From: a virus
Direction: 5' to 3' (one strand)
DNA length: 25,322 nucleotides
IMG/VR virus record: IMGVR_UViG_3300041405_000157
Location: 1-25,322 of that record
The notes under the pieces are model-generated. The model ran no database searches. It was given only the letters and a program-made list of their open reading frames with translations, and had not been told where the DNA came from. The translations under genes were made by a program, and so were the position numbers. Of the stretch, positions 6,239-24,075 are shown piece by piece. Numbering within the stretch: position 1 is the stretch's first letter; every line of letters begins with the position of its first letter.

Positions 6239-6862
6239 CTATGACGGGGCACGCGCTGGCTGTTGTGCCATACCTGACACAACAGGCGCGCCGTTTTCAC
6301 GCAGGGTTTTCTGTTCCGGGGCGGGGATATAGCGGTAAAGCGTCTTCACTGACACGTCCAGCACCAGTGACACCTGCAGCAGCGTTGCGCCCTGCGCCAG
6401 CATCCGCCGGGCACGCTCCACCGTTTCCGGCGTCATCTTCCGCCGCCTGCCACCGATGCGCCCTTTATCACGCGCAGCGGCCAGCCCGGCACGGGTGCGT
6501 TCTACGATCAACTCGCGTTCCATTTCCGCCAGGGCACCCATAACATGGAAGAAAAACCGCCCCATTGGCGTACTGGTATCGATGCTGTCTGTCAGGCTGC
6601 GAAAGTTTACACCGCGTTCGCGCAGTTCTTCAGTCAGCATGACCAGGTGGCGCATACTCCTGCCCAGCCGATCCAGCTTCCACACAATCAGCGTGTCGCC
6701 CGACTGCAGGCAGCGCAGCGCCTTTTTCAGCCCCGGCCTGTCGCTGGTTTTTCCGCTTATCCTGTCCTCGAAAATCAGCTCACAATCTGCGCTCTGCAGC
6801 GCAATCCTTTGTAAGTCCGTGTTCTGGTCATTTGTTGACACCCTGATGTAGCCAATCAGCAC
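6239..6862 (-). CDS. Site-specific DNA invertase, Gin/Cin/Hin family serine recombinase
   Basis: This 207-residue serine recombinase belongs to the family that flips tail-fibre segments in Mu, P1 and e14. The catalytic serine is in IRVSTNDQNTDLQ (Ser9); the conserved arginines lie in KLDRLGRSMRHLV (about 62-74). The long helix MGALAEMERELIVERTRAGL (about 108-127) and a C-terminal helix-turn-helix (TLLQVSLVLDVSVKTLYRYI, about 159-178) follow. Length is typical (about 190-200). It sits beside a 26-bp crossover-like site at about 6926-6952 and the stump of a fibre segment. Only one crossover site remains, so it probably no longer has an inversion to perform here. Confidence 0.93.
   Translation of the reverse strand: MLIGYIRVSTNDQNTDLQRIALQSADCELIFEDRISGKTSDRPGLKKALRCLQSGDTLIVWKLDRLGRSMRHLVMLTEELRERGVNFRSLTDSIDTSTPMGRFFFHVMGALAEMERELIVERTRAGLAAARDKGRIGGRRRKMTPETVERARRMLAQGATLLQVSLVLDVSVKTLYRYIPAPEQKTLRENGAPVVSGMAQQPARAPS
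6260..6285 (-). promoter_or_regulatory. Ogr/Delta activator box for the FI operon
   Basis: An 8-bp perfect inverted repeat, CTGTTGTG (6260-6267) and CACAACAG (6278-6285), separated by 10 bases, contains the family consensus TGT-N12-ACA. P2-type late promoters carry this about 55 bases before the start of transcription, which here would be near 6217, leaving a leader of some 24 bases before FI. A possible -10 (CATAGA, minus strand 6233-6228) lies in the right area. The box is inside the last codons of the invertase gene. Confidence 0.75.
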
Positions 6863-6922
6863 GCTGAGTTCTCCGCAAATGGCCGCAAGTTTGCCAGTGC
6901 GGCCCGGCGCAGGGCCAGGCGT

Positions 6923-7212
6923 TTGTTTCTCAGAAACCTCGGTATTAGCGAAAAGTTTTCTGGCAGACTTTTGCGTACTGTAGTGATGACCGTTTCCGGC
7001 AATTACACGCCCGATCCTGCAGCTACAAAGGTGCGTTGCCAGATAGTCGGTGCCGGTGCCAGTGGAAGCAGTCCCGCTACGGTTAATGCCGCCTCATATA
7101 CTGCGGCCGGTGGCGGCGGTGGCGGTGGCGGTTTTGTAGAATTTGAAATTGATCTGACAAAAGCGAAGGTTAATAACATCCCGGTAATTATTGGCCTGGG
7201 CGGTGCAGCCGT
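6923..7212 (+). pseudogene. Stump of an inverted tail-fibre C-terminal segment
   Basis: Reading on the plus strand from the crossover site gives FLRNLGISEKFSGRLLRT, then SGNYTPDPAATKVRCQIVGAG and a run of eight or so glycines, ending near IIGLGGAAV. This is the common glycine-rich tail-fibre tip region. It points opposite to the rest of the tail genes, as expected for the silent alternative segment of an invertible fibre cassette. Continuity is lost near 7212: beyond this the frame (RCVRRRRKAAS...) is only the reverse strand of the lysis gene. There is no proper start codon because the constant N-terminal part is missing. Confidence 0.8.
6926..6952. other. Crossover (gix/cix/hix-like) site for the DNA invertase
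   Basis: A 26-bp imperfect dyad begins TTCTC, has AAACC-TC-GGT at its centre and ends CGAA. The central AAACC.. ..GGT with a two-base core is the hallmark of Hin/Gin/Cin recombination sites, and it lies about 65 bp from the invertase start, as in Mu and P1. It falls inside the first codons of the fibre stump (FLRNLGIS), exactly where such sites sit in fibre genes. The partner site is gone with the deleted fibre genes. Confidence 0.75.
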
Positions 7213-7439
7213 TAGCCGTTGCGTTCGGCGGCGGCGTAAAGCTGCGTCTGCGCCTGGCTGCTGGTCTGCGTCAGGATGTTCAGGGCAATCAGCTGGCTGT
7301 TTTTCTGGCTCAGCTTTTTTCCCTGAGTTTCTATGACTGCCTCATGCGCGTGAATCTTCTGATAGGCGTTGTGCAGGTTCCACGACTGCCACAACACAAT
7401 CCCCAGAAAAAAAAGAACCATCACGATGATGTTCTTCAT
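7212..7439 (-). pseudogene. Rz/LysB-like spanin gene, truncated at its 3' end
   Basis: The ATG at 7439 follows a GGGAG site by nine bases. The product has one N-terminal membrane segment (MKNIIVMVLFFLGIVLWQS) and a charged, Gln-rich helical part, typical of i-spanins such as Rz and P2 LysB. It stops after AAAERNG at 75 residues, about half the expected length (P2 LysB about 141). The end coincides with the start of tail-fibre sequence on the other strand, so the C-terminal half and any overlapping o-spanin (LysC) have been removed by deletion. A functional outer-membrane disruption step is unlikely. Confidence 0.75.
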
Positions 7440-7443
7440 GTGC

Positions 7444-7953
7444 TCAGACTCCCTTAAGGCACCATGCCAGTTCACGTCCGCGCCGGTTATCCAGCCCCTG
7501 ATTGAATACGCCTTTCACGTACACCCAGCGCGGCAGCTGGTAACACGCCTCGCGCCACTGGCCCTTTTTCAGCAGCACCACCATTGTGGAGCCGCACACG
7601 TTGCCGGTTCCCACGTTGAACGCCAGCGACACCAGCGCGTCATAAACCTGCTGCGGCATCGAGACCGCCACGCAGCGCGCCAGTGCCGCCTCGGTGCGTA
7701 GCACGTTGGTGATAAAATTCCCCGCAGCCTGCCGTTCCGTGATGGATTTACCCGGCACCACGCCGGACGTGTTGCCGATCCCGTCGGTCCACTTTCCCGC
7801 GCTGCACTGGTAAGGCTGCAGGCGGCAGCCCTCATAGTCGGCAATCAGCCGCAGCCCCTCCACGGAGGTATGCAGCAGCTGAAAACCGGGCATCGTGGCA
7901 GCCAGCGCCAGCACCACGCCCACGGCGCAGCGTTTAACGGTTTGCAGATTCAT
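7444..7953 (-). CDS. K: Endolysin (lysozyme, GH24) with signal-anchor-release N-terminus
   Basis: This muramidase cuts peptidoglycan at lysis. Counting from the upstream GTG (7959), the catalytic triad is Glu43-X8-Cys52-X5-Thr58, the E/C/T variant of the T4-lysozyme triad in which Cys replaces the usual Asp. A weakly hydrophobic stretch rich in Ala and Gly (residues about 11-29) is typical of SAR endolysins, which wait in the membrane until the holin collapses the membrane potential. The ATG at 7953 is preferred: a GGAG lies five bases upstream. It overlaps the end of the holin gene. Two Cys pairs (45/52, 65 and the C-terminal ones) could control folding after release. Confidence 0.88.
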   Translation of the reverse strand: MNLQTVKRCAVGVVLALAATMPGFQLLHTSVEGLRLIADYEGCRLQPYQCSAGKWTDGIGNTSGVVPGKSITERQAAGNFITNVLRTEAALARCVAVSMPQQVYDALVSLAFNVGTGNVCGSTMVVLLKKGQWREACYQLPRWVYVKGVFNQGLDNRRGRELAWCLKGV

Positions 7954-11805: not shown

Positions 11806-13572
11806 ATGAACATGACACCCGCCCCCGACGACCTCGATCCCCGCAGGCAGGCTTTACTGCTGTACTTTCAGGGATACCGCATCGCCCGCATTGCTGAAAT
11901 GCTGGGAGAGAAACCCGCAACCGTTCACAGCTGGAAGAAGCGCGACAGGTGGGGCGACTATGGCCCGCTGGATCAGATGCAGCTGACCACCGCCGCACGC
12001 TACTGCCAGCTCATCATGAAGGAGCAGAAGGAAGGGAAGGACTTTAAGGAAATCGACCTGCTGGCGCGGCAGTCCGAGCGCCATGCCCGGATCGGCAAAT
12101 TCAGCAACGGCGGCAATGAAGCGGACCTGAACCCGAACGTGGAGAACCGCAACAAAGGCCCGCGTAAGCCCCCGGAAAAGAACCTTTTCAGTGACGAACA
12201 GATTGAGAAGCTGCAGGAGGTCTTCCACGGCTCGATGTTCGGCTATCAGCGCCAGTGGTGGGAGGCCGGAAATAAGTATGCAGTCCGCAACCTGCTGAAG
12301 TCGCGCCAGATCGGGGCCACCTTCTTTTTTGCCCGCGAGGCGCTGATCGATGCGCTGACCACCGGACGCAATCAGATTTTCTTAAGCGCCAGTAAGGCGC
12401 AGGCGCACGTTTTCAAACAGTACATTATCGAATTTGCCCGTGAGGTGGACGTAGACCTGAAGGGCGACCCGATGACGCTGAGTAACGGCGCGTGCCTGTA
12501 TTTCCTGGGCACCAACGCCCGCACCGCGCAGAGCTATCACGGCAATCTGTACCTGGATGAATATTTCTGGATACCGAAGTTTCAGGAACTGCAGAAAGTG
12601 GCCTCCGGCATGGCGCTGCACAAGAAGTGGCGCGAAACCTACTTTTCCACGCCGTCCAGCCTCACGCACAGCGCCTATCCGTTCTGGTCCGGTTCGCAGT
12701 TCAACAAGGGCCGGGCCAAAGCGGACCGGGTTGATATCGACCTCAGCCATCAGTCACTGGCCGCCGGCCGCCTCTGCGAAGACGGCCAGTTTCGCCAGAT
12801 CGTCACCGTTGAAGATGCGGTGCGCGGCGGCTGTGACCTGTTTGACCTGGAGCAGCTGCGCACGCGCTACAGCCCGGAGGACTACCAGAACCTGCTGATG
12901 TGCGTCTTTATGGACGATCTGGCGTCGGTGTTCCAGCTGGCCATGCTGCAGAAGTGCATGGTGGACAGCTGGGAAGTCTGGACCGACTTTGAAGCGCTGG
13001 CGCTGCGCCCGTTCGGCTGGAAAGAAGTGTGGATCGGCTACGACCCCGCGAAGGGAACGCAGAACGGCGACAGCGCCGGGTGTGTGGTCATGGCACCGCC
13101 TGCCGTGCCGGGCGGCAAGTTCCGCATCCTTGAGCGTCACCAGTGGCGCGGGATGGACTTCCGGGCGCAGGCCGACGCCATCAGGACGCTGACGCAGCAG
13201 TATAACGTCACCTATATCGGCATCGACTCCACCGGCGTCGGGCTGGGAGTATACGAGAACGTCAAAGCGTTTTTCCCGCAGGTGAAGGAGTTTGTCTATA
13301 ACCCGAACGTGAAAAACGCCCTGGTGCTGAAGGCTTACGACACCATCGCCAGCGGGCGGCTGGAGTTTGACGCCAGCCACCTCGACATCGCGCAGTCATT
13401 CATGTCTATCCGCAAGGCCACCACGGCCAGCGGCAACCGTCCGACCTATGAAACCAGCCGCAGCGAGGAAGTCAGCCACGGCGATTTAGCCTGGGCGACC
13501 ATGCACGCGCTGGCAAACGAGCCGCTGCAGGGACAGGCGGCACACACGCAGAACATTGTGGAGATTTATTAA
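11806..13572 (+). CDS. P: Terminase large (ATPase) subunit gpP
   Basis: gpP powers DNA packaging into the head. From the ATG at 11806 it has 588 residues, matching P2 (590). An N-terminal helix-turn-helix (YRIARIAEMLGEKPATVHSWKKRDRW) is followed by a Walker A-like KSRQIGAT at about 165-172 and Walker B NLYLDEYFW with Asp251-Glu252. The C-terminal RNase H-like nuclease has Asp413 (GYDPAKG) and Asp474 (GIDSTG). The frame is open to 11701, but those 35 residues have no counterpart and precede the expected transcription start. No clear ribosome site precedes 11806 or the alternative ATG at 11812, so start choice rests on length and homology. Confidence 0.93.
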   Translation: MNMTPAPDDLDPRRQALLLYFQGYRIARIAEMLGEKPATVHSWKKRDRWGDYGPLDQMQLTTAARYCQLIMKEQKEGKDFKEIDLLARQSERHARIGKFSNGGNEADLNPNVENRNKGPRKPPEKNLFSDEQIEKLQEVFHGSMFGYQRQWWEAGNKYAVRNLLKSRQIGATFFFAREALIDALTTGRNQIFLSASKAQAHVFKQYIIEFAREVDVDLKGDPMTLSNGACLYFLGTNARTAQSYHGNLYLDEYFWIPKFQELQKVASGMALHKKWRETYFSTPSSLTHSAYPFWSGSQFNKGRAKADRVDIDLSHQSLAAGRLCEDGQFRQIVTVEDAVRGGCDLFDLEQLRTRYSPEDYQNLLMCVFMDDLASVFQLAMLQKCMVDSWEVWTDFEALALRPFGWKEVWIGYDPAKGTQNGDSAGCVVMAPPAVPGGKFRILERHQWRGMDFRAQADAIRTLTQQYNVTYIGIDSTGVGLGVYENVKAFFPQVKEFVYNPNVKNALVLKAYDTIASGRLEFDASHLDIAQSFMSIRKATTASGNRPTYETSRSEEVSHGDLAWATMHALANEPLQGQAAHTQNIVEIY

Positions 13573-14606
13573 TGAGCAAACGCAGGAACCGCCCCCGCAC
13601 GCAGCCTGTGCCGCAGCCGGATAACATGACCAGCGGGGCAGCGTCCGAGGCGTTTACCTTTGGCGACCCGATCCCGGTGCTGGACCGCCGCGAACTGCTG
13701 GACTACGTGGAGTGCGTTATCAATGATCGCTGGTATGAACCGCCCGTGAGCGTTGACGGGCTGGCGCGCACGTTCCGCGCCGCCGTGCATCACAGTTCAC
13801 CCATCAGCGTGAAGTGCAATATTCTGGCGAGTACCTTTATCCCGCACCCGCTGCTGAGTCAGCAGGCGTTTAGCCGCTTTGCGCTGGATTACCTGATTTT
13901 CGGCAATGCCTACCTGGAGAAACGGACCAGCCGCCTCGGTAACGTGCTGAAGCTGGAGCCGTCGCTGGCAAAGTTTACCCGGCGCGGCCTCGATTTAGAC
14001 ACATACTGGTATGCGCACTATGGCATTAACACGGAGCCGTATGAGTTTGCGAAGGGCAGCGTGTTTCACCTGATGGAGCCTGACATCAATCAGGAGATTT
14101 ACGGCCTGCCGGGCTACCTGTCGGCCATCCCGTCGGCGCTGCTGAATGAGTCGGCCACATTGTTCCGCCGCAAGTATTACCTTAACGGCAGCCATGCGGG
14201 TTTCATCATGTACATGACCGACCCGGCACAGAGCCAGCAGGACGTGGACAATATCCGCGGCGCCATGAAAAGCGCGAAGGGCCCTGGCAACTTCCGCAAC
14301 CTGTTTATGTACAGCCCGAACGGGAAGAAGGACGGCATCCAGATCATCCCGCTGTCTGAGGTGGCGGCGAAGGATGAATTCCTGAACATCAAAAACGTGA
14401 GCCGTGACGACATGCTGGCCGTGCATCGTGTGCCACCGCAGCTGATGGGGATTATTCCTAACAACACAGGTGGTTTTGGTGACATTGAGAAGGCCAGCAA
14501 AGTGTTTGTGCGTAATGAATTGATACCGCTGCAACGGAGATTACAGGAATTAAATGATTGGATTGGAGAAGATGTAATGCGATTTGAGGTCTATTCATTA
14601 AACTAA
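13572..14606 (+). CDS. Q: Portal protein gpQ
   Basis: The portal forms the ring through which DNA enters the head and to which the tail joins. The 344-residue length equals that of P2 gpQ. Conserved segments include DYLIFGNAYLEK (about 97-108), the HLMEPDINQEIYGLPGYLSAI stretch (about 156-176) and VHRVPPQLMGIIPNNTGGFGDIEKA near the end. Its ATG shares a base with the stop of P (TAATG), so the two genes are coupled. A strong hairpin terminator follows at once. It looks intact. Confidence 0.96.
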   Translation: MSKRRNRPRTQPVPQPDNMTSGAASEAFTFGDPIPVLDRRELLDYVECVINDRWYEPPVSVDGLARTFRAAVHHSSPISVKCNILASTFIPHPLLSQQAFSRFALDYLIFGNAYLEKRTSRLGNVLKLEPSLAKFTRRGLDLDTYWYAHYGINTEPYEFAKGSVFHLMEPDINQEIYGLPGYLSAIPSALLNESATLFRRKYYLNGSHAGFIMYMTDPAQSQQDVDNIRGAMKSAKGPGNFRNLFMYSPNGKKDGIQIIPLSEVAAKDEFLNIKNVSRDDMLAVHRVPPQLMGIIPNNTGGFGDIEKASKVFVRNELIPLQRRLQELNDWIGEDVMRFEVYSLN

Positions 14607-14661: not shown

Positions 14662-15306
14662 TCAAGGGCTAGATAATTGCCAATGCTGCTCAACAGACAA
14701 CAATATTTGAGGCAGTTCTTTTAACTGGTGATAAATTCCTTCAACCACATGTTCATGTGTGCGCCCACGACCAAGACAGGTCCTTAATGCGCTATCCACA
14801 CGAAACTCTCCTTGAAAGGCAATGCTCGCCTTATCGTTTATGTGATCGAGAGATAACTCATTAATAAGAAAGCAGATGACTTGCTCTAAACAGACAAATC
14901 TATTATTTAAAGAAGCTTCTTCAATAAAACCAGTTTCAGAAATGGCTTTTAAAAATCGCTTGTCACCTGAAAGTAATAAATCATGGTGATTCAACAAACC
15001 TTGCACTAAACGCATTTCACCTTCGTCAAGGTTATCGAAACTATTTTGAAGGTTGATTAACCTTGAATCGGTAATTAGTTCTCCAAATAGTAAAAAATCA
15101 CCTTGAGCTATACAATATTTGACGCGCTCAATAGCTTCAGTACCGTATCTGCGCAAAGCTGCTTTACCTTTGAGCTGATACACCAATGTATCTAATACAT
15201 ATAACTGGCCATAGTTTCTTGTGAGTAATTTGCAACCATCAGCAAGCAGATCTAATTGGGCCAATTTCAGTACTACATCATTATCAAGTAATACAGCCAC
15301 TGGCAC
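14662..15306 (-). CDS. PIN-like domain protein (putative RNase/toxin partner)
   Basis: This 214-residue protein has the layout of a PIN-fold nuclease: an N-terminal acidic strand AVLLDNDVVLKLAQL (Asp8, Asp10), a central LDEGEMRLV (Asp94, Glu97) and SGDKRFLKA (Asp115). These acidic residues would bind metal for RNA cleavage. The C-terminal 90 residues are not recognised. The GTG start shares one base with the stop of the metalloprotease gene upstream (TAGTG), so the pair is one operon with coupled translation. Base composition is AT-rich relative to the phage structural genes, suggesting separate acquisition. PIN-like proteins beside ImmA/IrrE-type proteins occur in candidate toxin-antitoxin loci; the exact subfamily and function here are inference. 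Confidence 0.6.
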   Translation of the reverse strand: MPVAVLLDNDVVLKLAQLDLLADGCKLLTRNYGQLYVLDTLVYQLKGKAALRRYGTEAIERVKYCIAQGDFLLFGELITDSRLINLQNSFDNLDEGEMRLVQGLLNHHDLLLSGDKRFLKAISETGFIEEASLNNRFVCLEQVICFLINELSLDHINDKASIAFQGEFRVDSALRTCLGRGRTHEHVVEGIYHQLKELPQILLSVEQHWQLSSP

Positions 15307-16322
15307 TAAACCTCGATGTTGTTCATTTTGCAGAGCATTTCGAACTTATCTTCCGAAACTTTATCTTCGTCAACGTATTCCAAAAAGGTTCGGTTAGCTT
15401 GCTCAGCCCATGTCAAATTGGGATAGATAATGTTCAATGCGCTAAAGCAAACGGGATAATAGTTTCCACCATTGCGACCCATTGTCTTCGCATAGTTAAG
15501 AGCAACATGACCCGGATCAACCTGATTTTGTCGCGCGATACGAAGAGCGCCATCGGCTAGTACATCTGCAGTCACCCTAAAACGACTGTAAAAAGATGCA
15601 TCAGGGCGACCATTCAACAGTTCAATAGCGAATGCGTTTGCTTCAATTTCTTGCGGATTATCAACGTCATCTTCATTAATTTTTTCATCAATTAGTAATG
15701 AGTTACGTTCGAGGTGACCACATGCAATATGTCCTAGTTCATGCGCCAAACTGAAGAGCAAAGCACTAGCGTGTTTTTGCCTTTTTGTTAAGGCAATGAC
15801 CGGACGTTCTGAAACTTTAATAGCAACAGCATCCATTTTTTTTCTTGCTGGAATTTCAGGCATATAAAGAACTGGAATACCCATAGACCATGAATATTCC
15901 AAAAGTGCCTGATAGTCTACCCACGGCTTGCCGCTCGATAATATTAATTGACGAATATCACTAGCAGTTGGAAGCTCATTGTAATCATTTTTTACAACTG
16001 TCGCAGCTATTTTTGCCATACCGTCCACAACTGCAGTAGCAGCCTGAAGCTCTGCTACAGGTTTATTAGCTGCATGCTTATATCTACGAACTGAATCATT
16101 GAATCGCAGCGGTGTGGCAGGGTTAAGTACAGCATTAAGATCTAGATTGGCAAATTTTGCCAATCCTAAAATTACCTGCTGACTAATGCTCGGTGACTGA
16201 TTCAATGAATCGTCCCACCAATCAGGGAGTAACTTAGCTAAACCTTCAGCCAATCGTCTATCGAGAGTGCTGACTCGGTTTAAAAAAGCATTAAGAGGTT
16301 TTTGATGGATAGTTACAGTCAT
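15306..16322 (-). CDS. ImmA/IrrE-family metalloprotease (COG2856-like)
   Basis: The 338-residue protein carries a zinc-protease motif His194-Glu-Leu-Gly-His198 in LFSLAHELGHIACGH, and the follow-up EIEANAFAIELL (Glu225/Glu227), which supplies the third ligand in ImmA/IrrE proteins. Such proteases cleave or sense DNA-binding regulators (ImmR in ICEBs1, DdrO in Deinococcus). The first 75 residues are helical (SISQQVILGLAKFANLDLNAVL) and could be a degenerate Xre-like domain; no clear helix-turn-helix is visible. A very good ribosome site (AAGGAGGGG) precedes the ATG. It is first in an operon with the PIN-like gene. Whether it is antitoxin, activator or sensor for that protein cannot be told from sequence. 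Confidence 0.78.
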   Translation of the reverse strand: MTVTIHQKPLNAFLNRVSTLDRRLAEGLAKLLPDWWDDSLNQSPSISQQVILGLAKFANLDLNAVLNPATPLRFNDSVRRYKHAANKPVAELQAATAVVDGMAKIAATVVKNDYNELPTASDIRQLILSSGKPWVDYQALLEYSWSMGIPVLYMPEIPARKKMDAVAIKVSERPVIALTKRQKHASALLFSLAHELGHIACGHLERNSLLIDEKINEDDVDNPQEIEANAFAIELLNGRPDASFYSRFRVTADVLADGALRIARQNQVDPGHVALNYAKTMGRNGGNYYPVCFSALNIIYPNLTWAEQANRTFLEYVDEDKVSEDKFEMLCKMNNIEV

Positions 16323-16340
16323 CTCCGCCCCTCCTTATAA

Positions 16341-16376
16341 AGTTGATTCTGATAGTTGATTTCTTGCCAGAGTATA
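16341..16376 (-). promoter_or_regulatory. Promoter and direct repeats before the metalloprotease-PIN operon
   Basis: On the minus strand a TATACT -10 (16376-16371) lies about 50 bases before the ATG, with only a weak -35. Between it and the ribosome site AATCAACT occurs twice (16361-16354 and 16348-16341), 13 bases apart. Repeats at this position are typical of self-repressed toxin-antitoxin-like operons; binding is inference. Confidence 0.45.
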
Positions 16377-16454
16377 ACTGGTGCCGGAACGCTTCACACG
16401 GGATTTCTTTATATTCCGCACATTGCCCAACTGAGCATTAACTCTTAGCGCGCG

Positions 16455-16497: not shown

Positions 16498-16609
16498 ATG
16501 CAGGTGCATGACATAAGCAAAAGCCCGCCAGTACTGGCGGGCCGGAGGGCTAACGATCCTTCTGGGATCATGCGAATTCATGCAGCATAGACATGCACTC
16601 ACGCGCATG
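16498..16609. repeat. Cluster of CATGC motifs beside cos
   Basis: CATGC or its complement GCATG occurs six times in 112 bases: 16498, 16506, 16569, 16579, 16592 and 16605. The cluster starts 25 bases from cos and ends at the next gene. P2 terminase needs sequence beyond the cut site, so these may be terminase-binding repeats. The 290-base stretch 16323-16612 holds no gene; it contains the operon promoter, cos, this cluster and the palindrome at 16523. Confidence 0.45.
16518..16542 (-). terminator. Palindrome, probable leftward terminator
   Basis: A 20-bp perfect palindrome GCCCGCCAGTACTGGCGGGC (16523-16542) is followed on the minus strand by TTTTGC. It would stop leftward transcripts from the dinI operon before they cross cos and enter the PIN cassette. 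The T-run is short, so a structural role next to cos is also possible. Confidence 0.65.
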
Positions 16610-16952: not shown

Positions 16953-17192
16953 TCAGTGTTGGTACTGCCAGCTGTCGTCTTCCCATACTGCCTGCAGAAT
17001 ATCCATAACGTTCTTTTTATCATCGTCCTGCCTGACGCCGCTCAATGTGACGCCATTTGCGCTTCCTTTGCGGATGCGGATATTAGTATCAGGATAAAGT
17101 GGAAGAAAATTCTTATAAAGTTCGGCCTCAAGAGCTGAGAGAATTTCCGTGCTGATTTTTTGCTCTTTATTAATCATTATCTCAATACGCAT
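16953..17192 (-). CDS. dinI: DinI-like SOS modulator
   Basis: A 79-residue DinI-family protein. The start MRIEIMINKEQKISTEILSALEAEL and the end VMDILQAVWEDDSWQ match the DinI pattern (N-terminal strand, helix, then an acidic C-terminal helix that mimics DNA and binds RecA). Phage copies such as Orf97 of 186 sit in LexA-controlled operons. It follows the 62-residue gene by nine bases. The LexA box at 17413-17428 controls both. Confidence 0.88.
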   Translation of the reverse strand: MRIEIMINKEQKISTEILSALEAELYKNFLPLYPDTNIRIRKGSANGVTLSGVRQDDDKKNVMDILQAVWEDDSWQYQH

Positions 17193-17390: not shown

Positions 17391-17412
17391 TTGTCCTCCC
17401 TCGACGCAATAA

Positions 17413-17428
17413 CTGTATATGCGTACAG
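17413..17428 (-). promoter_or_regulatory. LexA box over the dinI-operon promoter
   Basis: CTGT-N8-ACAG (17413-17428) within AACTGTATATGCGTACAGTA differs from the ideal SOS box at few positions. On the minus strand a TATACT -10 (17432-17427) overlaps its edge, with TTTCAC 16 bases upstream as a possible -35. LexA binding would block this promoter. The remaining stretch 17433-17586 up to gene A shows nothing else clear. Confidence 0.9.
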
Positions 17429-17586
17429 TATAGTAAGAGAAAAAAAATGTGAAATGTTTTTTACGTTCAATCAGCAGTAGTCTTAAAAAATTACCGCATC
17501 AACGCTGATTTCAACCTCCTAATTTGATTGAATAAAACGATAACAGCTTTCTGACACCGGCTTCGCTTACGTGAATCACATCTTAA

Positions 17587-19956
17587 TCAGATCCACTGTC
17601 GCCATTTATCATCTTCCTGCAGTCGTCCGTTCCGGTAGAAAAGGCGCATACCTGCACCAGAATCCAGACTTCCCCCTGACAGAAGCAGGTTTATTTCCCT
17701 TTCGTCCCCGGCAAAACCTCTTACCCGTAACTCTGCAACCAGAAGCGCACACCGATTATCGTCAATTTCCTGCTTATAACTTTGCTTCTGGCGCGGCTTA
17801 ACCACCCGGAGTCGCGCCAGCAGATCCCGGCGCTGTTTTCTGGTCATATTGTCGAAGTCTGCCGGACCATACAGAGGCGCTTCGCCTGGCTCTACAGGTT
17901 CAACTGATACTGGATTGCCCCCTGAAATGTTCAGTTTTTCATCAGGGGGACAGTTATTGCCACGAGTCCAAGGGGCGCTAGCGCCCTGGTCGGCTGTCGC
18001 CTCCTGAACGTCAACGGCCTTACGGACCATCTTCCACTTTGTTGCGTGCGTGCAGATACGGCCCGCCACTAACGGGGACCAGATGCCATAAATGCGGGTG
18101 CCGTGATCGCCGTAAGGGGTTGGCTCGTCGTTAAGCTCGTAAGCAGTTCTGACGATGTGATGTTTACGTGGAACCAGCACGCCGCCCTGCTTCATGATGT
18201 AGGTGGCAAAGCAGCCCACATCTGCAGCGGCCAGCACGGCGTCCAGCTGAGCGTTTTCAAGCACCGGTGCACCGGCTTTTTTATCGCTCTGATTTCTCAA
18301 CGCCTGACCGGCAAGCAGCCGCAGCTCCCGGTAAGCCTGACGGCCCGGAATGCCAAAGAAGCGGAACTGCTGAACGCGATGAAGTGACGCCCACGCCCCG
18401 ACGTTCTCCGCGCTGTCACGCAGTGATTTACCTGTTTCTGCACTGATTTCATCAGACAAACCACGGCCATCAATATTTTTACTGACGTATTTAGCGATAT
18501 AACTGGTCGGTGAACCTTTGCGCGGGTTAATCAGCTCAGCTTTAAAGCGTGGCCCGGTGTTGCTGCCAAGCTCTTCGCGATCTTCGCGAATGGCGAATTT
18601 CCGCAGCAGTGCGGTGACTGAACGGCGCTCTTTTTTGCGCATGAAGCACAGCAGGTGCCAGTGTACGGTGCCGTCGTGATGCGGCTCTGCAACCCGCACG
18701 CCATACCAGCGCATACCGGTTTTGTGCATGGCTTTGCGGAAGGCGGCAAACGTATCGACCAGATAATCACTGCTCTGGCGTACCGTTGCCGTGGTCCATT
18801 TCGGGTTGGGCCTGCCGTTGTTAAGCGTTGCGTGGAAACGTGACGGGCAGGTAATGGTGTAAAACACGGCGCAGTCGCCGCGCATTTCCGCGATAAGCTC
18901 CAGCCCTTTAACGCAGGCCATCATTTCATTACGGCGGTGAGCCGGATTGCTGTTACTGGCATTCACCACGTCTTCCATATCCAGCGTATCGCCTTCATTG
19001 CTGACCAGCTCATGCGAACGGAAGAACTCCAGAGACTTCCGGCGCTGCTCACGCTTATGGATCACCGCTTCAAAGCTGACGTAGGGGGATGCTTTTTTGT
19101 TGACCAGGCAGACAGCGCGCAACTGTTCTTCACGCCATTCACAGCGCAGCTGCCACAGCTTGCGATACCACCAGTCCGCGCAGAGCATACGGGCCAGCGA
19201 GGGCGGGATCAGATCATAAGGTACGGGCTTGCGGCGGCGCTTTTTGCGGCGCAGCTGCTCAAAGGCCGGGGGGATTACATCCAGGCGCATCGCTTCTGCC
19301 GCAACAATTTCCCATGCCTGGCGGACCTGCTCCGGCGTCACGTCGTCACTGACGAACAGATGGCCGCTGGCTTTATCCAGACACATGCTCATGTGCGCAG
19401 CGACCAGCGTAGATAAACGCTTGACCTGATTCTGGTTCATTTCAGGCAACGCCAGCAGGCCGTCCAGCCCGTCATGACCGGCCATAAACCGGAAGGAGGC
19501 TGAAATCTGGCTTTCGCGCACGCGGGCCAGCCTCTCAAGGCAGGGGCGGATAGTTTCGCGCAGGTAGCGGGAATAAGCCTGCGGCCTGCCGAGATTGTGG
19601 AAAAACTTAACGCGCTCCATGAGTGGCTTGCTGATGTGTGAAGGCTGGGCGCTAACATCGGCCACGATAACCAGATCGGGATTGTGTTGCTGCTGTTCGC
19701 GGGCCATCTTTGCCCGGCTGACGATTCTGTCCTGCACAATTTCGCGCTGGACAGGATCGCGTGACTCATTGAAAAAGTAACGGTCCCAGACCTGATCGCT
19801 CACTGCCTCACGGCGCAGCTGCTCCTGCTCATTATCCGCAGCATAGAGAGCGATCAGGTTTGAAAGCGCGGACACCGGCGCAACTTCCGCCGGGTCCAGC
19901 TGTGGATTGATTGCCTTTTTAGGGGCATTCCAGGGGTATGCGAAAGCCTGAGTCAT
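17587..19956 (-). CDS. A: Replication initiation protein gpA (rolling-circle, HUH endonuclease)
   Basis: gpA nicks the phage origin and stays covalently bound to the 5' end during rolling-circle replication. The 789-residue protein (P2: 761) has the HUH-type metal site VHWHLLCF (His432, His434) and the paired tyrosines Tyr486 and Tyr490 in [13 protein letters not shown], equivalent to the Tyr450/Tyr454 pair of P2. The first 230 residues and the C-terminal 150 are more variable. It is the last gene of the leftward early operon; its ATG overlaps the end of the Dam gene. In P2 the origin is inside this gene; a candidate is noted at 17973. There is no P2 B (helicase loader) gene in this prophage. 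Confidence 0.95.
17973..17986 (-). other. Candidate replication origin region inside gene A
   Basis: A 14-bp perfect palindrome, GGGCGCTAGCGCCC, lies in the variable C-terminal part of A, followed on the minus strand by CTTGGACTCGTGGCAA. P2-family phages have the gpA nick site inside A, next to secondary structure. The palindrome stands out in the gene, but the nick position cannot be assigned without alignment. Confidence 0.3.
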
Positions 19957-23505: not shown

Positions 23506-24075
23506 ATGGAGTTTACAACTGGAGGCAAAGAGGTGGTTCACCGCTTGCTGGAAGCTTATGGCTTTAGAACGAGACAGGCGCTATGCGACCAATTTGGCGT
23601 TTCAAAAAGCACCATGGCGTCTCGCTATTCAAGAGACATTTTTCCGGCAGATTGGGTCATACAGGCTGTTATTGAAACAGGTGTAAATATTGAATGGCTC
23701 GCTTTTGGCAGAGGCGTCAAGTACTCAAATGAAAACCACGCTGCCAAAAAAATCCCGAGTGTAAGATTAGAAAGCGGAGTTCTTTCCAATGGCGAACTTC
23801 TTTTTGTTGATAAAGAGTTGTTCCCTGACGTCTTACGTGATCCGCATGTGCTGTTCATTGGTAATGGCCGCTATATCGTTGATTTAGCACCTAGCGATAT
23901 TATCGACGGCTTATGGTTGGTTGAAATAGACGGCAAAGCATCACTACGCGAAATAATGCGCTTACCCCAACAGAGAATCAGAGTATCCAATGAGAGCGGC
24001 ACATTTGATTGTCACATCAATGACATCAAATTAAAGGGTCATGTGGCCCTTGTAATGCGTAAAGAGAGTGCGTAA
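23506..24075 (+). CDS. cI: Lysogenic repressor CI (186 type)
   Basis: CI keeps the prophage silent by binding the early promoter. The 189-residue product (186 CI 192) has an N-terminal helix-turn-helix (TRQALCDQFGVSKSTMASRY, 22-41) with the family sequence NIEWLAFGRG following, and a C-terminal oligomerisation domain (LLFVDKELFPDV, GLWLVEIDGKASLREI). I see no LexA/lambda-type Ala-Gly cleavage site with Ser/Lys dyad, in keeping with 186 CI, which is removed by an antirepressor rather than by RecA. A GAGGGG precedes the ATG. cI and int are separated by three bases and share a transcript. Confidence 0.9.
   Translation: MEFTTGGKEVVHRLLEAYGFRTRQALCDQFGVSKSTMASRYSRDIFPADWVIQAVIETGVNIEWLAFGRGVKYSNENHAAKKIPSVRLESGVLSNGELLFVDKELFPDVLRDPHVLFIGNGRYIVDLAPSDIIDGLWLVEIDGKASLREIMRLPQQRIRVSNESGTFDCHINDIKLKGHVALVMRKESA

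What the first reader, a model, noticed from the sequence alone, without database searches (positions are those of the whole stretch)
14662..16322. AT-rich PIN-like plus ImmA/IrrE metalloprotease operon in the P2 defence interval
Seen: two translationally coupled genes (TAGTG overlap), HELGH plus EIEANAFA in the first, and PIN-type acidic residues (D8/D10, D94/E97, D115) in the second. A strong ribosome site and direct repeats AATCAACT lie before the first gene, and terminators isolate both sides. Known: P2 carries tin and old, both anti-phage genes, in the interval between Q and A around cos, and related phages carry varied defence genes there. Inference: this is an accessory cassette, possibly a toxin-antitoxin or anti-phage system in which a protease controls or senses for a PIN nuclease. 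The C-terminal 90 residues of the PIN protein and the N-terminal 120 of the protease are not recognised.
Basis: partly seen in the sequence, partly recalled or inferred. Interest (0 to 1): 0.8.

Follow-up and report, generated by a model that had tools for sequence, protein, structure and literature searches.

The report
Protease-guarded PIN nuclease phage cassette
A P2-like prophage carries a tightly linked gene pair, an IrrE-type zinc protease and a PIN-fold nuclease, that looks like a new family of a known kind of toxin-antitoxin system and may protect the host cell from other phages, although this has not been tested.

Summary
Window 14662-16322 (minus strand) holds a coupled pair: a 338-aa ImmA/IrrE (M78) protease and a 214-aa protein with a confident PIN-fold model (mean pLDDT 91.7), although no Pfam PIN family matches any of 38 relatives. 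Of 57 viral loci found from the protease side, the 53 whose match extends beyond the zinc-site core all carry the PIN gene directly behind; the other 4 do not. The pair was also intact in every bacterial and plasmid locus examined. It is under purifying selection, co-inherited (r 0.94), rare and patchy. In 36 of 53 viral loci it lies beside a P2-type portal gene, an interval published as an anti-phage hotspot.

Best explanation: a toxin-antitoxin/abortive-infection module. The protease protein is antitoxin and sensor; the PIN protein is an RNase released on infection. Closest described systems: VapBC52 (IrrE-domain antitoxin that cuts itself on ssDNA, PIN toxin) and RosmerTA. This family keeps an invariant Lys82 after Tyr/Phe81 at the N-domain/protease junction, where VapB52 has its proposed Phe-Arg cleavage site, but lacks VapB52's switch cysteine. 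Function is untested. In seven alpha/betaproteobacterial loci the pair sits with three further conserved genes.

The parts
15306..16322 (-). 338-aa ImmA/IrrE (M78) zinc protease, proposed antitoxin and sensor
   Evidence: Pfam PF06114 3.7e-8; PHROG 18577 1.2e-127; model close to CapP and IrrE; zinc site in 45 of 45
14662..15306 (-). 214-aa PIN-fold protein, proposed RNase toxin; GTG start overlaps the protease stop (TAGTG, 15304-15308)
   Evidence: PHROG 15597 3.9e-67; PIN-like model; profile match to PF01850 members
16107..16301 (-). N-terminal five-helix domain of the protease protein (residues 8-72) with invariant P33, W35, W36
   Evidence: model secondary structure; 45 of 45; XRE-like only by a weak profile score
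16077..16082 (-). Tyr81-Lys82, candidate self-cleavage motif at the N-domain/protease junction
   Evidence: Lys82 45 of 45, Tyr or Phe81 44 of 45; low-confidence linker; role inferred from PMC13273310
15729..15743 (-). HELGH zinc site (H194-H198)
   Evidence: H194, E195, G197, H198 45 of 45
15648..15650 (-). E225, third zinc ligand by family analogy
   Evidence: 45 of 45
15277..15285 (-). D8-N9-D10 of the PIN protein, first acidic position
   Evidence: D8 and D10 38 of 38; D8 aligned to the first VapC Asp
15016..15018 (-). E97 of the PIN protein
   Evidence: 38 of 38; aligned to the VapC Asp of the fifth helix
14962..14964 (-). D115 of the PIN protein (GDKR motif)
   Evidence: 38 of 38
16328..16336 (-). 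ribosome-binding site AAGGAGGGG
   Evidence: sequence; GGAGGG kept in all 9 aligned sequences
16371..16378 (-). GTTATACT, possible -10 element
   Evidence: kept in 8 of 9 aligned sequences, changed in L008; the consensus scan did not report it
16341..16361 (-). two direct repeats AATCAACT, 13 nt apart
   Evidence: both copies kept only in L001
14618..14648 (.). terminator-like hairpin between the pair and the portal gene
16522..16543 (-). terminator-like hairpin upstream of the pair

Best explanation
A two-gene toxin-antitoxin module carried as P2-like phage cargo, most likely acting by abortive infection against other phages. Shown by computation: the two genes are kept together; the second protein has a PIN-fold model with an invariant acidic set; the first has an intact M78/IrrE zinc site and a separate N-terminal domain joined by a linker with an invariant Lys. 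Inferred: the protease protein binds and silences the PIN RNase through its N-terminal domain; a sign of infection or DNA damage, probably ssDNA, unlocks the zinc site; the protein then cuts itself (candidate site Tyr/Phe81-Lys82) and frees the PIN RNase, which cuts tRNA or other RNA and stops the infected cell. The general statement (protease protein is antitoxin and sensor, PIN protein is toxin) is about 0.6 likely; self-cleavage at this exact site about 0.35.
For: Pairing in 53 of 57 viral loci from the protease side and 28 of 28 from the PIN side (overlapping sets), co-inheritance r 0.94 with 0 of 2000 permutations reaching it and dN/dS 0.04-0.14 in the 7 of 10 comparisons that could be computed. 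PIN-like model and PF01850 profile score 35.9 against at most 14.4 in 100 column shuffles. Protease related to CapP and to VapB52 (PDB 9vzy) by profile (3.9e-4 and 5.2e-4). In VapBC52 an IrrE-domain antitoxin with a five-helix N-domain cuts itself on ssDNA and releases a tRNA-cutting PIN toxin (PMC13273310, abstract and passages). ImmA proteins act as antitoxins in RosmerTA, also with PIN-like partners (PMC10440598, passages). Lys82 45 of 45 and Tyr/Phe81 44 of 45 in a low-confidence linker. Hotspot position.
Against: No toxicity, neutralisation or defence data. VapB52's switch cysteine has no counterpart at the same spacing (0 Cys in 45, 2 of them gaps). The N-domain is not recognised as HTH by Pfam or against solved structures, and hhalign probability to XRE domains is only 0.5-3.6%. 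Foldseek gives no hit at E 0.001 or better for either model. The second acidic residue of VapC has no acidic counterpart. In PD-lambda-2 the Xre-peptidase protein, not the HigB-like one, was toxic (PMC9519451, passages). No complex was modelled.
Confidence: 0.6

Rival explanations
1. Reversed or serial roles: the protease protein is the toxic effector, or it activates the PIN protein by clipping it, and the partner restrains or guides it.
For: PD-lambda-2_B, the Xre-peptidase of PD-lambda-2, was toxic and rescued by the HigB-like partner (PMC9519451, passages); it is the best PADLOC match of the window protease (1.9e-12). The PIN protein has an unassigned helical C-terminal part, about residues 150-214, that could be a clip site.
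Against: An invariant acidic set in the PIN protein argues for an active nuclease. The only invariant residue in a low-confidence linker is in the protease protein. VapBC52 and RosmerTA place the toxin outside the ImmA protein.
Confidence: 0.18
2. Prophage addiction only: the same toxin-antitoxin chemistry, kept because it stabilises the prophage or element, with no useful phage defence.
For: Toxin-antitoxin pairs can act so; the pair also lies on two cyanobacterial plasmids.
Against: Position in an interval where several cloned systems gave phage resistance (PMC9122126, section 10); a sensor-type protease is not needed for plain addiction (inference).
Confidence: 0.12
3. Phage regulation: the protease is an ImmA-type anti-repressor that cuts a phage repressor and so controls lysogeny.
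For: ImmA of ICEBs1 and PprI/IrrE cut or inactivate HTH repressors (PMC2701414 passages; PMC10904395 abstract).
Against: The pair is in 4 of 5426 E. coli genomes, although P2-like loci are common there (18,150 occurrences in the genomes of PMC9122126), and it also lies on non-P2 elements, chromosomes and plasmids. In the window it lies about 7 kb from the CI-like repressor gene (23506-24075). It does not explain a constant PIN partner.
Confidence: 0.06

Closest known systems
VapBC52 (PDB 9vzy and 9vzz; PMC13273310, abstract and passages seen)
   Same: IrrE-domain antitoxin with an N-terminal helical domain, PIN-fold toxin, aromatic-basic dipeptide at the N-domain/protease junction; protease parts detectably related (5.2e-4)
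   Different: No cysteine at the switch spacing; homology of the N-domains not shown; host and sequence family differ; self-cleavage and toxicity untested here
RosmerTA (RmrA/RmrT) and the ImmA-PIN pairs of NetFlax node D25 (PMC10440598, passages seen)
   Same: ImmA-type protein as proposed antitoxin; PIN-like partners reported there; phage defence shown for a RosmerTA of phage Kita
   Different: RmrA models match only the protease part; no RmrT model matches any of 38 PIN members
Xre-COG2856 with PIN toxins (PMC2701414, passages seen)
   Same: Predicted operons of a Zn peptidase, often fused to Xre, with a PIN toxin, common in phages
   Different: The Xre part is not recognisable here by family models
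PD-lambda-2 (PMC9519451, passages seen)
   Same: ImmA/IrrE peptidase with N-terminal domain; best PADLOC match
   Different: Three genes with a HigB-like first gene; here two genes with a PIN-like second gene
CapP/CapH and IrrE(PprI)/DdrO
   Same: Protease fold (CapP Z 9.2, 161 residues, 4.8 A; IrrE Z 7.7, 95 residues, 3.5 A); ssDNA activation reported
   Different: They cut a separate HTH repressor; the conserved partner here is a PIN-fold protein

Membership tests
VapBC52-like IrrE-antitoxin/PIN-toxin modules | PIN-fold partner with conserved acidic residues | tested here: met
VapBC52-like IrrE-antitoxin/PIN-toxin modules | IrrE-type peptidase with HExxH and a third Glu ligand | tested here: met
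   45 of 45; profile match to 9vzy_A 5.2e-4
VapBC52-like IrrE-antitoxin/PIN-toxin modules | N-terminal toxin-binding domain of five helices | tested here: inconclusive
   five helices predicted; no sequence match of the N-domain to any solved chain at E below 1; toxin binding not testable here
VapBC52-like IrrE-antitoxin/PIN-toxin modules | aromatic-basic cleavage motif at the N-domain/protease junction | tested here: met
   Tyr/Phe81 44 of 45, Lys82 45 of 45; Lys in place of Arg; position by analogy, not by alignment to VapB52
VapBC52-like IrrE-antitoxin/PIN-toxin modules | cysteine-switch residue nine positions after the zinc site | tested here: not met
   position 207: 0 Cys in 45, 2 gaps; judged by spacing only
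VapBC52-like IrrE-antitoxin/PIN-toxin modules | ssDNA-triggered self-cleavage and tRNA cleavage | not testable with these tools
   needs biochemistry
RosmerTA | ImmA-type protease protein (RmrA) | tested here: inconclusive
   RmrA 1.6e-11, but only residues 120-236 against profile 145-251 of 380
RosmerTA | N-terminal HTH often present in RmrA | tested here: inconclusive
   no HTH family reported in 38 members (the 12 commonest families listed); profile score above 0 of 100 column shuffles' reach but hhalign probability 0.5-3.6%
RosmerTA | RmrT toxin of a described type | tested here: not met
   no PADLOC RmrT match in 38 PIN members at E up to 1
RosmerTA | toxicity neutralised by the ImmA protein; phage defence | not testable with these tools
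   needs expression and plaque assays
Canonical VapBC | match to Pfam PIN (PF01850) | tested here: not met
   0 of 38 members at E up to 1; profile-profile relation only
Canonical VapBC | four acidic positions of VapC | tested here: not met
   D8 and E97 align to acidic positions, D115 lies next to one; the second position aligns to Gln44
Canonical VapBC | RHH, AbrB or Phd antitoxin partner | tested here: not met
   partner is an M78 protease
PD-lambda-2 | three genes: HigB-like, Xre-peptidase, P4-antitoxin-like | tested here: not met
   two-gene unit, second product PIN-like
CapP/CapH | protease beside a separate HTH repressor that it cuts | tested here: inconclusive
   partner in all 53 loci is the PIN-like protein; short HTH genes were not searched for systematically around every locus

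The most novel reading that the evidence does not exclude
The pair is the executioner core of a larger, undescribed defence system. All seven alpha- and betaproteobacterial loci that carry the extra upstream gene family also carry, convergent with the pair, a methyltransferase-like protein (Pfam BpsA_C; the one member scanned matches Mad2 of PADLOC) and a small protein that is a distant paralogue of the upstream one. P2-like phages would carry the stripped two-gene form, run by a self-cleavage switch that needs no cysteine.
Probability: 0.22. Interest if true: 0.72.

Novelty: new member of a known kind. Interest (0 to 1): 0.5.

Why it matters
It would add an anti-phage candidate to the P2 cargo interval that can be cloned in one step from E. 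coli or Erwinia P2-like prophages. It also makes a general question testable: whether IrrE-type proteases that serve as antitoxins sense infection themselves and free a PIN RNase by cutting off their own N-domain, and whether this needs the cysteine switch described for CapP and VapB52.

Tried and rejected
Sequence search of the PIN protein against the PDB found nothing, and its profile found only four weak, unrelated hits (best Cas12a 0.033). Pfam on 38 PIN members gave only weak hits to unrelated families. NCBIfam gave nothing for the PIN protein and a sub-threshold antitox_spr1629 match for the protease (22.1 bits against a cut-off of 335). Foldseek gave no hit at E 0.001 or better for either model. 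tblastn of either protein against 50,697 phage records found nothing at 1e-5, and megablast neither.

The AATCAACT repeats as an operator: rejected, since seven of eight relatives do not keep both copies. A sigma-70 promoter: not reported by the scan. An SOS box in the pair's own promoter: none; the best box is upstream of the neighbouring operon, and a 2-mismatch site at 16019-16038 lies inside the protease gene. The N-domain as an ordinary XRE domain: not shown. The first hhalign run against PF01850 held one sequence read on the wrong strand (L129); it was corrected, and searches used the corrected set.

Genome surveys with the PIN profile were sparse: 2 of 240, 1 of 369, 1 of 369 (apparently the same class sample twice) and 3 of 296 genomes, each count including the centre genome. 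dS was not computable in 3 of 10 comparisons and above 1 in 5 of the other 7, so those ratios are rough. (PMC10899753, passages) was irrelevant. No paper describing this pair was seen in searches; supplementary tables of PMC9122126 and the NetFlax dataset could not be read here and may list it.

Full report
What is there. The window is a 25,322-base IMG/VR virus record with P2-like gene content (portal, replication protein, tail sheath and tail protein by PHROGs). Between the portal gene gpQ (13572-14606) and the gpA-type replication gene (17587-19956) lies an A+T-rich stretch (G+C 37-45%) with two genes on the minus strand: a 338-aa protein (15306-16322) and a 214-aa protein (14662-15306) that overlap as TAGTG. 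Terminator-like hairpins lie on both sides. The repeated AATCAACT is real, but of eight relatives only L001 keeps both copies.

First protein. It matches Pfam Peptidase_M78 (3.7e-8) and PHROG 18577 of unknown function (1.2e-127). PADLOC matches are partial: PD-Lambda-2_B 1.9e-12 over residues 141-274 and RmrA 1.6e-11 over 120-236. A profile of 38 relatives finds two solved chains at E below 0.001, CapP (3.9e-4) and 9vzy_A (5.2e-4). The model (pLDDT 87.8, pTM 0.87) realigns to CapP at Z 9.2 (161 residues, 4.8 A) and to IrrE at Z 7.7 (95 residues, 3.5 A), while Foldseek alone gives CapP at E 0.017. H194, E195, H198 and E225 are present in 45 of 45 sequences.

Second protein. It belongs to PHROG 15597, of unknown function (3.9e-67); no Pfam PIN family appears for any of 38 members. 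The model is confident (pLDDT 91.7, pTM 0.89). Foldseek alone is weak (best E 0.048, a VapBC entry). In the realigned list the first 14 rows score Z 7.9-9.2: 8 are titled VapC, VapBC or PIN and 6 are archaeal proteins without a family in their title (from recall these are PIN proteins too). A profile comparison with 18 PF01850 members found in five genomes scores 35.9, and 100 column shuffles reach at most 14.4; hhalign's own probabilities are 33% and 76% in the two directions, against 0.2-0.3% for three control comparisons. D8 and E97 fall on acidic VapC positions and D115 next to one; the second VapC acid aligns with Gln44. D10, in a D-N-D motif, is invariant. The PIN part covers about residues 1-150; the helical rest is unassigned.

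Pairing. From the protease side a scan of viral contigs returned 57 loci. In 53 the PIN gene follows directly on the same strand, with -28 to +11 nt between the stop and the first possible start; one of the 53 (L086) is cut at its start by the contig end. The other 4 (L090-L093) match only around the zinc site and have no PIN gene. From the PIN side 28 of 28 viral loci have the protease gene directly upstream; the two sets overlap. Bacterial genome contigs: 5 of 5; further genome hits 4 of 4, in three genomes, and plasmid records 3 of 3. E. coli: 4 of 5426 genomes, all 4 with both features under the match, two read in detail. Identities fall to 17% for the PIN protein and 24% for the protease, so the linkage is old. 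Distances of the two proteins correlate at 0.94 (0 of 2000 permutations reach it), and dN/dS against the window is 0.04-0.14 in the 7 of 10 comparisons that could be computed.

Where it lives. In 36 of 53 viral loci a P2-type portal gene lies convergently downstream, and in 27 of these a gpA-type gene also lies upstream; several loci are cut by contig ends, so these are lower bounds. This is the gpA-gpQ interval that PMC9122126 describes as a hotspot with 1,650 arrangements among 18,150 occurrences in E. coli, where old-tin and three of eight further cloned systems gave resistance (section 10 read); the terms IrrE, ImmA and metallo do not occur in its main text. Other copies lie on contigs without a recognised P2 portal, on chromosomes and on two cyanobacterial plasmids. 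Genome surveys show it is rare. That is the distribution of mobile cargo.

N-terminal domain and mechanism. Residues 9-66 form five predicted helices, and P33, W35 and W36 are in 45 of 45. No HTH family matches, nor does any solved chain at E below 1. The domain's profile scores 19.2 against 30 XRE domains, above all 100 column shuffles (maximum 17.1), while the C-terminal part does not stand out (9 of 100 shuffles reach its score); but hhalign's probability is only 0.5-3.6%. A derived XRE-like domain is plausible, not shown. The linker that follows is among the least confident parts of the chain (block 81-90, pLDDT 53), yet it holds the only invariant residue between W36 and R124: K82, preceded by Tyr or Phe in 44 of 45. 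In VapBC52 the antitoxin has a five-helix N-domain needed to bind the PIN toxin, an IrrE peptidase domain and a conserved Phe-Arg motif at their junction; ssDNA triggers self-cleavage, thought to free a toxin that cuts tRNA (PMC13273310, abstract and passages; entry 9vzy is named there). The parallel is close in layout and the protease parts are detectably related. It is not complete: the switch cysteine of VapB52 is missing at the corresponding spacing (0 of 45, 2 gaps), though D212 (44 of 45), next to a low-confidence loop, could play that part (speculation).

Comparison with known kinds. PMC2701414 predicted operons of Xre-COG2856 with PIN toxins (passages). PMC10440598 found PIN-like partners of ImmA antitoxins and tested a RosmerTA system against phages (passages). 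In PD-lambda-2 it was the Xre-peptidase protein that was toxic (PMC9519451, passages), which supports the reversed-roles rival. The present pair most likely works like VapBC52 and RosmerTA and is best called a new, undescribed family of that kind. It fails the RmrT, PF01850 and cysteine-switch tests, so it is not filed as a member of RosmerTA, canonical VapBC or VapBC52 proper.

An extended form. In L016 the extra gene points away from the pair. One more chromosomal locus, L151, has the pair without these genes. The small protein and the extra upstream protein look like distant paralogues (hhalign P 3.8e-5; four control comparisons 0.13-0.55). Three of the seven also share a kinase-like neighbour (P-loop recognised by eye). 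No P2-type locus held here matched these families. The meaning of the island is open.

Verdict. New member of a known kind; interest 0.5.

Noticed in passing
window 6239-7475: A DNA invertase gene (minus strand) and a tail-fibre fragment on the opposite strand lie directly between the tail sheath gene and the lysis genes; the other P2 tail genes expected there (R to G, recalled gene order) are missing, so the prophage or its assembly lacks a tail block.
   Followed up: partly
window 17411-17430: A near-consensus SOS box (1 mismatch) precedes a small operon with a DinI-like gene (16953-17192) that runs towards the pair; a terminator-like hairpin at 16522-16543 separates them. Read-through on DNA damage could be tested.
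   Followed up: partly
L013, L014, L015, L016, L152, L153, L154: Five-gene island in alpha- and betaproteobacteria: methyltransferase-like and small protein, convergent with extra protein, protease and PIN; the two extra small families look paralogous.
   Followed up: partly
L007 4916-6352: A 478-aa protein that looks SEFIR/TIR-like by eye (recalled motif) lies between the PIN gene and the portal gene of this relative, as a second possible defence gene in the same interval.
   Followed up: no
L009 16325-17655: The E. coli ET565 P2-like prophage with the pair also carries a DUF4041 gene beside the CI repressor; DUF4041 is listed among defence domains in PMC9519451 (passage).
   Followed up: no
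L156 (CP125156.1): A 5.37-Mb Klebsiella pneumoniae record named plasmid unnamed2 holds the pair inside a P2-like prophage; by its size it looks like a mislabelled chromosome.
   Followed up: no
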